A stretch of 36,677 nucleotides of DNA from assembly GCA_014238285.1 (NCBI GenBank), contig JABABK010000033.1, positions 1-36,677 on the forward strand. The letters run 5' to 3'. Of the stretch, positions 1-3,770 are shown one piece after another. The DNA is from Hellea sp. Lineage in GTDB: Bacteria > Pseudomonadota > Alphaproteobacteria > Caulobacterales > Maricaulaceae. Under the pieces are notes generated by a model. The model was not told where the DNA came from. It was given only the letters and a program-made list of their open reading frames with translations, and made no database searches. The position numbers and the translations under genes are program-made. Each line of letters opens with the position of its first letter. Within the stretch, counting starts at the first letter, position 1.

Positions 1-55
1 TATCCTGTTGCTAAAAATTCTACGTTGCGACTGGCCCCACAACGCAATTTGGCGA
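1..55. repeat. 55-base exact direct repeat, copy A (at the window edge)
   Basis: Bases 1-55 are identical to 229-283 and diverge at the next base (t versus a). The offset is 228 bases, exactly 76 codons, so the two copies encode the same 18 residues (RQIALWGQSQRRIFSNRI) in the same frame of the HhH gene. The repeat starts at the very first base of the window, so its true left limit cannot be seen. Confidence 0.95.
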
Positions 56-411
56 TGAAAATTAATCTCATTTTCTATAAGCTTTTCGGCTAAAACAGGC
101 GTAATTCCATCAATTTGCGTGAGATCATCAGAATTTTGCCCTTCATCAGGCTCCTCAATAATTTCGTCAGTCTTAGCTTTCACCAGCGCGCGGGCCTGAA
201 TCGACCATCCTTCATCTATGGACACACCTATCCTGTTGCTAAAAATTCTACGTTGCGACTGGCCCCACAACGCAATTTGGCGAAAATAGTGGACCTTGTG
301 AGCATTAAGTATACTTTCAAGCTCGGCTCCAATCTCTGTTATCTCTTGAAGGTTATCACTTAATTTAAGTTGCTCGGAGGCCACATTTTTTCCCAGGTTA
401 CCTGTTATCAT
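1..411 (-). CDS. Tandem helix-hairpin-helix repeat protein, N-terminal 137 residues (runs off left edge)
   Basis: On the minus strand an open frame runs from ATG 411 to base 1 without a stop; the previous in-frame stop is at 433-435. It encodes two copies of an alphaproteobacterial HhH module of about 76 residues. Unit one begins near residue 22 (DNLQEITEIGAELESIL) and continues RQIALWGQSQRRIFSNRIG and a DEGWSIQARALVKA tail. Unit two begins near residue 95 with a cleaner HhH core (DDLTQIDGITPVLAEKL). The pattern 'DDLxxIxGIxPxLxxKL...FxQIAxW...WxxQAxAL' is known from C-terminal extensions of ribosomal protein L21 and NuoE in this class; it usually mediates nucleic-acid or protein contacts. The gene starts 29 bases after the sulfotransferase stop, so the two are probably co-transcribed. 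ATG 411 lacks a well-spaced ribosome site; GTG 384 follows GGGAA at good spacing and is an alternative. The function is unknown, and the rest of the protein lies outside the window. Confidence 0.72.
   Translation of the reverse strand, partial: MITGNLGKNVASEQLKLSDNLQEITEIGAELESILNAHKVHYFRQIALWGQSQRRIFSNRIGVSIDEGWSIQARALVKAKTDEIIEEPDEGQNSDDLTQIDGITPVLAEKLIENEINFHRQIALWGQSQRRIFSNRI
229..283. repeat. 55-base exact direct repeat, copy B
   Basis: This is the internal copy of the repeat at 1-55. The protein sequence just before the shared block (read on the minus strand) differs between the two units (HKVHYF versus NEINFH), yet the block itself is identical in DNA. That suggests recent gene conversion, or a collapsed longer tandem array. 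Confidence 0.95.
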
Positions 412-440: not shown

Positions 441-2489
441 CTATTTCTCACGTTTCAAATCAACTAGCATACTTTCATGTATATCGTTTAATGAAGGTCC
501 GGATTTTTTGAGTTTTTTGTGCATCTCCCGCACTTTCGGAAGACACTCATCCAAATTGTCCTGCATGGCATTTAGGACGGGGCTAACATCCCCTAATTTC
601 TCTTTAATGGAAGCTACCATGGGATATGTGTTGTCTGTTTTTTCCTTGAGAGCTTGAATAAGAGGCGCGGATTCATTTGCTTTTTCTTGTAACGAGTTAA
701 GCATTGGCAAAGAACCTTCTAATTTTTCTTGTACCGTTGTCAGCATAGGACCAATATTATCTAATTTACCCTGCAAAGTATCGGTAATAGGGCGGGCGTT
801 TTCAAGCTTCTCTTGCGCGGATTTACCAAGTCCGGTTGTCCCATCAATCTTTTTTGAAAGAGCCGTCGATATAGTCGTCGCACTTTCAACCTTGTTCAAT
901 GCGGATTGACGCAGAGCTCCTGTTCGCTCGAGCTTCTCAAGAATAGTCTCAAACTTATGTTTACCCTTAGCCTCAAGCTCACCCTTAATACTGTCCAAAT
1001 TGTTTTGAAGCGCATTTAAAACAGGTGAGGCACCTTCTAATTTGTCTTTCAAAGACAACATTGCGGGATCCACATTGTTTAAATTCGTCTGGATCGTACT
1101 TAAGATCGGCCCCGTATTGTTGAGCTTCTCCTTAAGTGTTAATATCATTGCTTCTGTGTTCTCTAGCCGCTCTTGAAGCGCAGTAAGAACAGGAAGTGAT
1201 AGATTGATTTTCGCTTGGACCATTTCCAGCATAGAGAAAATACCATTAAGTTTTTCAGAAACAGCCATCATCATTGGATCGACGTTTTCGAACTTGCCAT
1301 CAAGAGCGTCCACTACAGGTGTTATTCCATCAAGTTTTTCTTGTGCCGACTGCCGTAGCTCTATGGTCTTTTTGAGTTTCTTTCCAACGCCCTGCATGGC
1401 CGGTAAACTACGATTAAGTTCGTTTTGGATTTTTTTAAGATCGGGAGCAGAATCGTTCAAGACATCTTGCTTTTTACGAATTTGCCCGTACGCACTCGCC
1501 ACGAGTTGGGCTGAATATTCTAAAACCAAATCCTCATTACTTTCTACGTCTTCGGCTGCAGAAGCAATTTTAAATAAAGATTTCTCATCTGGAAAATACC
1601 TTTCCTTGATCCACTTATTGTCGGGTTTTGATAGTTTTTTTATGGTTTTAACTTGCTCTTTTGACAATCGAGCCTTCCCATAAAGACCCGTAGAATCAAG
1701 TTTAGCTAAGTCACTAATTAATCCATCTCTGGCTCGGTTTTTCTCACCATCGACCAAAATGGGTAGATGAGGGTTCACTGTCTTCAAGAACTGGGTTCCA
1801 ATCAGGCTTAACGATTCATTTTGACGTTCAACATTAAATTCATCAAGGCCTTCAGTGACCCCTATTAAATCCAAGAAGTCGTGAATAACATTCCCAGCAA
1901 CCAGTCGATCTCTCTCAAACAACCTTATGTTTAAAGCATCGCCAAAGGTTTTTTCTATCCCTTCGATCAATCCCTTATACTGTAATAGGAAGGGCAAAAC
2001 CTTGTCTTCAATTTCTTGCAAGACTCCAAATTCGGTACCGCCGCCTTTAATAAAAGTAGAATACAAGCTCATTAACATCGCCGCTTGTTCTCTTAAATAA
2101 AGGACAACGACCGTTTCCTCTGCAACTTCATCACAATAGGCCTTAACCAGGTGATATTTTGTATGAACGGCAATAAACTCACTGGATAAGATTAGATTCT
2201 CAGCGCTCGTTTTGCTATACTCGTCTTGGAGCTGCTTATTTAAGTTCTCCGAAAAAGCTGACCAAGTTCCACCATTTCGTTCAATTGCAGCTTTAAACAC
2301 TGGCCTACTAACGAGGTTAGGATTAAACAGTGCAGCAAGAAGAACATTTTTTCCAACAGCTGTCGCCTTGGGGTAAAAATATCCCAATGATTCAAGTTTT
2401 TCACGGTGAATATCTAGAGCACGCTGGATTGAAGTCGTTCCGGTCTTTTCAAGACCGATATGCAAATAGACTTTTTTAAACTTTTTCAT
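441..2489 (-). CDS. Sulfotransferase-like protein with a C-terminal 14-residue tandem-repeat tail
   Basis: 682 residues in two halves. Residues about 5-340 look like a PAPS-dependent sulfotransferase: strand-loop HIGLEKTGTTSIQ (10-22) matches the 5'-phosphosulfate-binding loop, and NLILSSEFIAV (98-108) resembles the 3'-phosphate-binding strand. Residues 347-676 are 23 copies of a 14-residue unit, roughly (S/T/V/I)xP(M/L)LxALQEKL(E/D)(N/G), with one 8-residue insertion after unit 12. There is no signal peptide or membrane span, so it is predicted to be cytoplasmic. It begins 15 bases after lysC ends and precedes the HhH gene, suggesting one operon. The acceptor is unknown; enzymes of this kind often modify surface glycans. 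The tail probably forms a rod or oligomerisation module. The fold is fairly secure, the substrate and tail function are not. It is AT-richer than lysC. Confidence 0.8.
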   Translation of the reverse strand: MKKFKKVYLHIGLEKTGTTSIQRALDIHREKLESLGYFYPKATAVGKNVLLAALFNPNLVSRPVFKAAIERNGGTWSAFSENLNKQLQDEYSKTSAENLILSSEFIAVHTKYHLVKAYCDEVAEETVVVLYLREQAAMLMSLYSTFIKGGGTEFGVLQEIEDKVLPFLLQYKGLIEGIEKTFGDALNIRLFERDRLVAGNVIHDFLDLIGVTEGLDEFNVERQNESLSLIGTQFLKTVNPHLPILVDGEKNRARDGLISDLAKLDSTGLYGKARLSKEQVKTIKKLSKPDNKWIKERYFPDEKSLFKIASAAEDVESNEDLVLEYSAQLVASAYGQIRKKQDVLNDSAPDLKKIQNELNRSLPAMQGVGKKLKKTIELRQSAQEKLDGITPVVDALDGKFENVDPMMMAVSEKLNGIFSMLEMVQAKINLSLPVLTALQERLENTEAMILTLKEKLNNTGPILSTIQTNLNNVDPAMLSLKDKLEGASPVLNALQNNLDSIKGELEAKGKHKFETILEKLERTGALRQSALNKVESATTISTALSKKIDGTTGLGKSAQEKLENARPITDTLQGKLDNIGPMLTTVQEKLEGSLPMLNSLQEKANESAPLIQALKEKTDNTYPMVASIKEKLGDVSPVLNAMQDNLDECLPKVREMHKKLKKSGPSLNDIHESMLVDLKREK
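462..1451 (-). repeat. 23 tandem 14-residue (42-base) protein repeats in the sulfotransferase-like gene
   Basis: Codons 347-676 divide without gaps into 14-residue units, apart from one 8-residue insertion after unit 12. Positions 1, 5, 8 and 12 are hydrophobic or small, giving 4-3-4-3 spacing, which is two heptads. Position 3 is proline in 16 of 23 units, positions 9-12 are often Q-E-K-L, and position 14 is often N or G. Units 3-5 (TIELRQSAQEKLDG and following) resemble units 15-17 (TTGLGKSAQEKLEN and following), which points to block duplication as well as unit duplication. Confidence 0.9.
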
Positions 2490-2504: not shown

Positions 2505-3770
2505 TTATCCCACCTCTAGCTCGAACGCACTATGCAAAGCCCGAACCGCCAGTTCAGTATACTCAGCATTTATTAAAACGGAAATTTTTATTTCAGAGGT
2601 TGCAATAACTTCAACGTTAATACCGCGCTCGGCGAGCGCTTCAAACATCGTCTGAGCAACACCTGTATGGGATCGCATGCCAATTCCAACAATCGATACT
2701 TTAGTGACATTTGAATCTGATTTGAGTCCCTCAAAGCCAATATCTGATTTAGCCGCTTCCAAGGCGGTCACAGCCTTTTCTAAATCGCGCTTTCCAACCG
2801 TAAACGTTAAATTGGCGGCGTTATCCGAGCGAGAAATACTCTGCACAATCATATCAACGATAACATTGGCATCCGACATAGTTTTACAAACTTTTGCGAC
2901 CATACCAGGTGTATCTTCTAGTTGAAGAATTGTGATTTGGGCTTCATCGCGAGAATAAGCCACACCGCTAACAATACGTTCTTCCATAGTTTCATCCTCA
3001 TGACAGACCAATGTTCCGGGATTGTCAGCACCGTCTTTAGCAAAACTGGTCAACACCCGAATTGGGAGATTATTATTCATTGCAAGCTCGACTGATCGAA
3101 CTTGTAAAACTTTTGCGCCCAGAGACGCAAGCTCAAGCATTTCTTCAAACGCTATCCGGTTTAACCGGCGTGCTTCTGGGACAATACGCGGATCCGTCGT
3201 ATAGATACCATCCACATCCGTATAGATATCGCAACGATCCGCCTTTAGGGCCACCGCCAATGCCACAGCTGACGTATCTGATCCGCCCCTACCAAGGGTC
3301 GAAATTCGTCCATCGTCAGAAATCCCTTGGAACCCCGCGACCACAGCCACTTTACCTTCGGAAAACGCTTCGTTCATTTTCGTATCTTCAATCGACTCGA
3401 TACGGGCCGAACTATGGGCCATATCGGTTCTAAGCGGTATCTGCCATCCAAGCCAGGATCTGGCTTTAACGCCTCGGCGGCGCAGCGCAATCGCGAGAAG
3501 GCCTGAAGTCACCTGTTCCCCAGATGATACAATGGCATCATATTCATCTTCAATCGGACCTCCCATGCTTTGATTATGCCCATTTACGCGGTCCGCGTCG
3601 AGAGCATCTACAAAGCCTACAAGGCGATTAGTTTCGCCGCTCATAGCCGAAACCACCACAGCAACTTCATTGCCATTAGCAACCTCTGCAGCAACCAAAT
3701 CTGCAACCCGGCGTATCCGCTCTAAGTTCGCAACAGATGTGCCGCCAAATTTCATGACGATACGCGCCAT
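2505..3770 (-). CDS. lysC: Aspartate kinase
   Basis: Aspartate kinase (EC 2.7.2.4) phosphorylates L-aspartate with ATP, the first step toward lysine, threonine, methionine and diaminopimelate. The 421 residues match the usual length. The N-terminus carries the kinase signature KFGGTSV (residues 7-13), followed by SSGEQVTSGLLA, GRGGSDTSAVALA (about 158-170) and YTDVDGIYTTDPR (about 183-195). Two ACT regulatory domains fill roughly 265-420, so feedback control by lysine and/or threonine is expected. Class II enzymes often have an internal start giving a separate ACT subunit; this was not resolved here. ATG 3770 has GGGA seven bases upstream. It is divergent from ubiG and probably leads an operon with the two minus-strand genes that follow. 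It is functionally linked to dapB at 12963, although not adjacent. Confidence 0.97.
   Translation of the reverse strand: MARIVMKFGGTSVANLERIRRVADLVAAEVANGNEVAVVVSAMSGETNRLVGFVDALDADRVNGHNQSMGGPIEDEYDAIVSSGEQVTSGLLAIALRRRGVKARSWLGWQIPLRTDMAHSSARIESIEDTKMNEAFSEGKVAVVAGFQGISDDGRISTLGRGGSDTSAVALAVALKADRCDIYTDVDGIYTTDPRIVPEARRLNRIAFEEMLELASLGAKVLQVRSVELAMNNNLPIRVLTSFAKDGADNPGTLVCHEDETMEERIVSGVAYSRDEAQITILQLEDTPGMVAKVCKTMSDANVIVDMIVQSISRSDNAANLTFTVGKRDLEKAVTALEAAKSDIGFEGLKSDSNVTKVSIVGIGMRSHTGVAQTMFEALAERGINVEVIATSEIKISVLINAEYTELAVRALHSAFELEVG

What the first reader, a model, noticed from the sequence alone, without database searches (positions are those of the whole stretch)
462..1451. Sulfotransferase tail of 23 proline-punctuated two-heptad repeats
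Codons 347-676 divide into 14-residue units with hydrophobic positions 1, 5, 8 and 12, the heptad pattern of a coiled coil, yet 16 of 23 units have Pro at position 3. A regular proline every fourteen residues should kink or break a continuous helix, giving either a segmented rod, helical hairpins or surface-binding amphipathic helices like those of apolipoproteins. A 330-residue repeat fused to a sulfotransferase-like domain is not an architecture I know. It could tether the enzyme to a polymer, membrane or partner.
Basis: partly seen in the sequence, partly recalled or inferred. Interest (0 to 1): 0.72.

Follow-up and report, generated by a model that had tools for sequence, protein, structure and literature searches.

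The report
Sulfotransferase with proline-marked coiled-coil tail
A bacterial enzyme that probably adds sulfate to sugars carries a long helical tail of repeated 14-residue units whose number differs between related species, which suggests a natural adjustable spacer or oligomer-forming arm.

Summary
The repeat is real. Gene 441-2489 (-) encodes 682 residues: a sulfotransferase-like P-loop domain (1-318), then a tail of 14-residue units. The tail is not one array of 23. It is two blocks of 11 units (347-500, 523-676) around a 22-residue insert, and block 2 looks like an old copy of block 1 (offset 176 residues). All 16 prolines of the tail sit at unit position 3, the outward heptad position f, with four different codons. 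Two AlphaFold models give about 90% helix in the tail, through most prolines, but confidence is low past residue ~400.

Orthologues at the same site, between lysC and ptsP, differ: one has 14 units, one about 11 partly degenerate units, one a short end without the repeat, and one is fused to a second sulfotransferase. Four congeners have no insert. First, second and end units match among the three tailed proteins; the interior varies. A profile of the unit found no other carrier in genomes sampled from the class (384) or phylum (397).

Best reading: a coiled-coil, oligomerising spacer on a glycan sulfotransferase. A WbdD-like length ruler is possible, but the exporter domain expected for it was not found in the tailed genomes. 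No function was tested.

The parts
441..2489 (-). ST-A gene, 682 aa: sulfotransferase-like domain plus repeat tail
1536..2489 (-). sulfotransferase-like domain, residues 1-318
   Evidence: AlphaFold block pLDDT 74-98; orthologue model's top PDB match 3rnl, a sulfotransferase; relatives by sequence; no Pfam or NCBIfam hit for residues 1-346 alone
2424..2462 (-). 5'-PSB-type loop HIGLEKTGTTSIQ, residues 10-22
   Evidence: H10, G12, K15, T16, G17, T19-Q22 invariant in 32 aligned proteins, I11, E14, T18 nearly so; motif name recalled
2067..2093 (-). Arg133...Ser141, 3'-phosphate-binding type
   Evidence: S141 invariant, R133 in at least 90% of 32 aligned proteins; comparison with cytosolic sulfotransferases recalled
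1452..1535 (-). residues 319-346, start of the long tail helix
   Evidence: helix 319-397 in the model
990..1451 (-). repeat block 1, residues 347-500, 11 units, 8 with Pro at position 3
924..989 (-). insert, residues 501-522, with 8-residue phase shift; probable duplication junction
462..923 (-). repeat block 2, residues 523-676, 11 units, 8 with Pro at position 3; probable old copy of block 1
   Evidence: best self-match offset 176 aa / 528 nt; 0 of 500 unit-order shuffles reach the alignment score
504..545 (-). end-type unit, residues 649-662, His at position 9 as in the last unit of both tailed orthologues
   Evidence: sequences
2505..3770 (-). aspartokinase gene (lysC), conserved border of the variable insert
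   Evidence: Pfam AA_kinase and ACT domains; same place in relatives; gene name recalled
1..411 (-). next gene, helix-hairpin-helix-like repeats, cut by the contig end
   Evidence: a further copy of the domain lies before ptsP on G000:C106

Best explanation
A PAPS-dependent glycan sulfotransferase whose C-terminal tail is a coiled-coil rod. The rod makes the enzyme oligomeric and holds the catalytic heads at a distance set by the number of 14-residue units. Each unit is two heptads with core positions 5, 8 and 12 and a weaker, often Ser/Thr, fourth core position (1). Proline stands at the outward position f, where it can bend the helix towards its partners without touching the core. The first two units and an end unit are specialised; the interior is filler that changed by gain or loss of units and, in this genome, by doubling of an 11-unit block. 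Shown by calls: the repeat, the proline phase, the block match, the variation in length, sulfotransferase-type motifs and a modelled P-loop fold. Inferred: oligomerisation, a rigid rod, PAPS use, a glycan substrate. What the far end binds is unknown.
For: LIVMF in 31, 29 and 33 of 36 units at positions 5, 8 and 12. Prolines 16 of 16 at position 3, four codons. Hydrophobicity peak at 3.5 residues in all four segments tested, including the degenerate G007 tail. Both models about 90% helix in the tail. Block match at offset 176. Orthologues with 14 units (G005) and about 11 (G007), with matching first, second and end units. Top fold hit of the G005 model 3rnl, a sulfotransferase, E 1.8e-4. Of four plasmid-borne relatives whose neighbours I read (of 20 records matched), two lie among polysaccharide genes.
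Against: Tail confidence is low past residue ~400 (block pLDDT 34-59), so a continuous rod is not shown. A 14-residue tandem repeat peaks at 3.5 residues by construction, so that figure is independent only for degenerate G007. With the window's own model the only Foldseek hit at E <= 0.001 is a GTPase; the sulfotransferase-fold protein 1x8j is rank 4. Fold matches are loose (3rnl: TM 0.51 by target, rmsd 7.0). Two orthologues lack the tail (G003, G009), so the head does not need it. The other two plasmid neighbourhoods are less clear. None of 27 window ORFs scanned matched a glycosyltransferase family at the limits used. No substrate, oligomer or anchor was tested.
Confidence: 0.5

Rival explanations
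1. Length ruler: the sulfotransferase caps a growing polysaccharide, and the tail holds it at a fixed distance from a polymerase, as the coiled coil of WbdD does, so unit number sets chain length.
For: Same order of parts as WbdD, terminator domain then coiled coil (passages of PMC5082667, and PMC11231755). Tail length differs between orthologues by whole units or blocks. Lengths calculated for full helix at a recalled rise of 0.1485 nm per residue are 50, 30 and 23 nm, against about 20 nm for WbdD.
Against: Wzt_C (PF14524), recalled as the exporter part that reads such caps, was found in 0 of 3 tailed genomes and in 1 of 10 congeners searched, G008, which has no insert; two of the three tailed genomes are only 75-82% complete. 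No glycosyltransferase family in the 27 window ORFs scanned. Two orthologues have no tail. I did not identify a membrane-binding end.
Confidence: 0.15
2. Partner tether: the tail brings ST-A together with the product of the next gene (ST-B in relatives), so that two sulfations happen on one substrate.
For: ST-B follows ST-A in G005, G007 and G003, and is fused to it in one frame in G009, where no tail is present.
Against: This genome has the longest tail, yet the only ST-B match in it is ST-A itself, 28% identical. G003 has ST-B but no repeat tail.
Confidence: 0.15
3. Segmented tail: each unit is a short helix of about 11 residues, closed by Asn/Gly 14 and Thr 1 and restarted at Pro 3, giving hairpins or a surface-binding chain.
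For: Position 14 is S, T, N, Q or G in 22 of 35 units and position 1 in 19 of 36, proline at 3 in 27 of 36, a plausible stop-start signal. Three prolines of the G000 model (405, 475, 665) lie outside helix.
Against: Models pass helix through most prolines, including 349 and 363, where block pLDDT of the G000 model is 84 and 73. G007 has only 5 tail prolines, 3 at one phase (reached by 700 of 20000 shuffles), but keeps the hydrophobic period.
Confidence: 0.2

Closest known systems
WbdD-type chain terminators (E. coli O9a; Klebsiella O4/O7 terminators)
   Different: Terminators in the passages are methyl, phospho-methyl or Kdo enzymes; the word sulfotransferase occurs 0 times in the main text of PMC11231755. 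Wzt_C not found in the tailed genomes. I did not look for proline-marked units in WbdD
Bacterial sulfotransferase-like proteins with the EKTGTTSIQ loop
   Same: Catalytic-type motifs and domain length; 78 loci in genome contigs
   Different: In a script that listed motif-bearing ORFs over 430 aa at those 78 loci (10 rows), only L032, which is G005, has the 14-residue tail; shorter ORFs were not listed
NPV_P10 coiled-coil proteins (PF05531)
   Same: Over the Pfam cut-off on the whole protein (34.5 vs 29.8 bits) and on the G005 tail (33.6)
   Different: About 40-57 residues matched; isolated repeat pieces score 15.9, 20.5 and 24.2, below the cut-off; a viral family, not fused to a sulfotransferase as far as I recall
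MCE family (TIGR00996) and SMC coiled coils (TIGR02168/02169)
   Same: Weak matches of the tail (E 2.5e-7; 8e-11 and 2.3e-11)
   Different: Far below the curated cut-offs (30.2 of 140.5 bits; 40.4 of 567; 42.1 of 729); read as general coiled-coil similarity

Membership tests
PAPS-dependent sulfotransferase superfamily | P-loop alpha/beta fold like solved sulfotransferases | tested here: met
   G005 model: top hit 3rnl, E 1.8e-4, prob 1.00. Window model: P-loop proteins first, 1x8j (PAP-bound, sulfotransferase fold by recall) rank 4, E 6.5e-3, so the match is weak
PAPS-dependent sulfotransferase superfamily | 5'-PSB Lys loop and 3'-PB Arg...Ser (recalled) | tested here: met
   K15, T16, G17, T19, S20, S141 invariant, T18 and R133 nearly invariant in 32 proteins
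PAPS-dependent sulfotransferase superfamily | hit to a curated sulfotransferase profile | tested here: not met
   Residues 1-346: 0 families in Pfam at E 10 and 0 in NCBIfam at E 1
PAPS-dependent sulfotransferase superfamily | sulfate transfer from PAPS | not testable with these tools
   needs an enzyme assay
WbdD-type coiled-coil ruler | terminator domain followed by a long coiled coil | tested here: inconclusive
   order of parts matches; coiled coil predicted with low model confidence; terminator role untested
WbdD-type coiled-coil ruler | ABC exporter with cap-reading Wzt C-domain (recalled) | tested here: not met
   PF14524 not found in G000, G005, G007; only in G008 of 10; control genomes rang in 2 of 14
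WbdD-type coiled-coil ruler | chain length follows coil length | not testable with these tools
   needs glycan analysis
MCE family (TIGR00996) | score over the curated cut-off | tested here: not met
   30.2 vs 140.5 bits
NPV_P10 (PF05531) | curated score and a match over the whole domain | tested here: inconclusive
   cut-off passed for the full protein and the G005 tail, not for repeat pieces; best stretch in the window protein covers 22-64 of 75
apolipoprotein-like amphipathic repeats | 11- or 22-residue period (recalled) | tested here: not met
   14 and 28 dominate (0.140, 0.137); 11 and 22 score 0.071 and 0.080, near the shuffle mean for 14 (0.074)

The most novel reading that the evidence does not exclude
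A sulfotransferase-tipped molecular ruler: sulfate is the chain cap, and the doubled 11-unit block of this species (calculated 50 nm against 30 and 23 nm in relatives) is a natural lengthening of the ruler, outside the ABC-exporter pathway.
Probability: 0.12. Interest if true: 0.75.

Novelty: new variant of a known kind. Interest (0 to 1): 0.42.

Why it matters
Natural orthologues of one enzyme with no repeat, about 11, 14 and 22 units form a ready series for testing whether coil length controls where an enzyme acts on a glycan. The strict placement of proline at one outward heptad position is also a clean test of how coiled coils tolerate regular proline.

Tried and rejected
Rejected: one register of 23 units. 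Rejected: recent DNA duplication of units (unit DNA identity mean 0.43, maximum 0.60). No support for a phage origin of the tail: no tblastn match in 50,697 phage records at 1e-6; PHROGs matches of the tail to tape-measure and other tail proteins (best E 3e-8) I read as coiled-coil similarity. Apolipoprotein reading disfavoured by period. Of the Pfam rows shown, DASH_Duo1 also passes its cut-off on the G005 tail (26.6 vs 25.4), which shows how readily coiled-coil models ring here.

Led nowhere: solved-structure searches with the tail (0 at 0.01) and with the unit profile (best E 0.18). Paper searches: searches returned 0 papers; no relevant title in the listing; one paper, of which I saw two passages, both in its reference list. 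A fitted slip at residue 648 was spurious: block 2's eight prolines keep one phase. The unit-order control is imperfect: its shuffles leave out the insert, and the best shuffle reached 261 against 265 observed.

Full report
Observation. The gene at window 441-2489 (-) encodes 682 residues. Residues 347-676 show a 14-residue period, z 16 against 2000 shuffles. A cyclic profile fitted in a script splits the tail into 11 units (347-500), an insert, and units from 523 on; the fit slipped at 648, but the prolines keep one phase to the end, giving 11 units (523-676). All 16 prolines of residues 347-682 fall at unit position 3. Proline codons are CCT 7, CCC 4, CCG 3, CCA 2, and unit DNA identity averages 0.43, so the position is not held by recent copying alone. 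Over 36 units of two species, positions 5, 8 and 12 are LIVMF in 31, 29 and 33, position 4 in 28, position 1 in 11; proline is at 3 in 27, at 2 in 3, and nowhere else. With 5 = a and 8 = d, proline is at f.

Block copy. Among offsets from 7 residues up, 176 residues (528 nt) gives the best self-match of the tail in protein (mean BLOSUM62 1.51, next 1.00) and in DNA (0.479, next 0.443). Local alignment of the two halves scores 265, against 194 +/- 19 for 500 shuffled unit orders; none reached it, the best was 261. At that offset units 3-9 share 5-8 of 14 residues and units 1, 2, 10 and 11 share 1-3. I read this as an old doubling of a block.

Head domain. Residues 1-346 alone hit no Pfam or NCBIfam model. 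The loop HIGLEKTGTTSIQ and Arg133/Ser141 are largely invariant or nearly so in 32 aligned proteins. AlphaFold places the domain at high confidence. Foldseek with the G005 model gives a solved sulfotransferase first (3rnl, E 1.8e-4); with the window's model it gives other P-loop proteins first, 1x8j at rank 4. Of 20 plasmid records with a match I read four neighbourhoods: Marinibacterium (Wza, wcaJ, rmlA, rfbD) and Paracoccus (glycosyltransferases, UDP-galactopyranose mutase) are polysaccharide regions; the other two have an epimerase and unclear neighbours. In the window itself, 27 ORFs scanned with Pfam (7, 10, 10; one search lists 45 ORFs of 120 aa or more, overlapping ones included) gave no glycosyltransferase family at the limits used; the flank holds housekeeping genes.

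Tail structure. Models give helix for 90% (G000) and 89% (G005) of the tail. Prolines with helix on both sides: 11 of 16 in G000, 8 of 15 in G005. Block pLDDT past residue 400 is 34-59 in G000, so only the first units speak. G007 has 5 tail prolines, 3 at one phase, which 700 of 20000 shuffles reach, while its hydrophobic period of 3.5 remains (0 of 500 shuffles). Regular proline is therefore not kept in every orthologue.

Relatives. Of 99 genomes (own included), 12 have a head-domain match at 1e-5. In the genus (10 genomes with the window's own) I take as orthologue ST-A, by identity and place beside lysC, ST-B or ptsP, the genes of G000, G003, G005, G007 and G009. Tails: G000 22 units; G005 14; G007 about 11 (157 residues; the gene is cut by the contig end on its N-terminal side); G003 a short end without the repeat (gene also cut); G009 none, fused in frame to ST-B. 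QN at positions 9-10 of unit 1, G and two basic residues at 9-11 of unit 2, and an end unit with His at 9 are shared by the three tailed proteins and read directly. lysC and ptsP are neighbours, 84-129 bases apart, in G001, G002, G004 and G008. In G006 neither gene was found at the limits used. G003 has two ptsP contigs (contamination listed as 6%); on C14 only a 79-residue match to ST-A lies between the genes. A ptsP tree of 10 rows interleaves carriers and non-carriers: G005 (14 units) pairs with G001 (no insert) at 100/98, and two of seven inner branches are open. Repeated gain or loss, or movement of the insert, is implied.

Spread of the repeat. Profile A5: 1 of 398 genomes of the order, the window's own. 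Profile A6: 1 of 385 of the class and 1 of 398 of the phylum, again its own. These are samples; G005 and G007, which would match, were not among the matches and so probably not in the samples. Control: A6 finds G005 and degenerate G007 and none of 8 other genomes. Rare carriers may be missed.

Known work. WbdD and related terminators carry a coiled coil that sets chain length (passages of PMC5082667 and PMC11231755). No paper on a sulfotransferase with such a tail came up, which cover open-licence papers only. Against filing this as a WbdD-type system: Wzt_C not found in the three tailed genomes and no glycosyltransferase family among the scanned window ORFs.

Conclusion. An unusual but intelligible architecture: sulfotransferase head, coiled-coil arm of variable length, proline held outward. 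An oligomerising spacer is the best-supported function; ruler, partner tether and segmented tail remain open.

Noticed in passing
window 1-411 and L139 (G000:C106 end): The next gene carries helix-hairpin-helix-like repeats that resemble extensions in L21 and NuoE models. A DNA repeat occurs twice near the contig end, so the break may be an assembly effect; another copy of the domain lies just before ptsP on C106.
   Followed up: partly
L027 9515-13437 (G009): Between lysC and ptsP: ST-A fused in frame to ST-B, then a gene without a Pfam hit that looks sulfotransferase-like by eye, and a methyltransferase (Methyltransf_9).
   Followed up: partly
L030 8713-9417 (G003:C14): A 79-residue match to ST-A between lysC and ptsP looks like the scar of a lost insert.
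   Followed up: no
L155 (G008:C3:2934-3335): A Wzt_C domain in the one congener of 10 with a match; this genome lacks the sulfotransferase insert.
   Followed up: no
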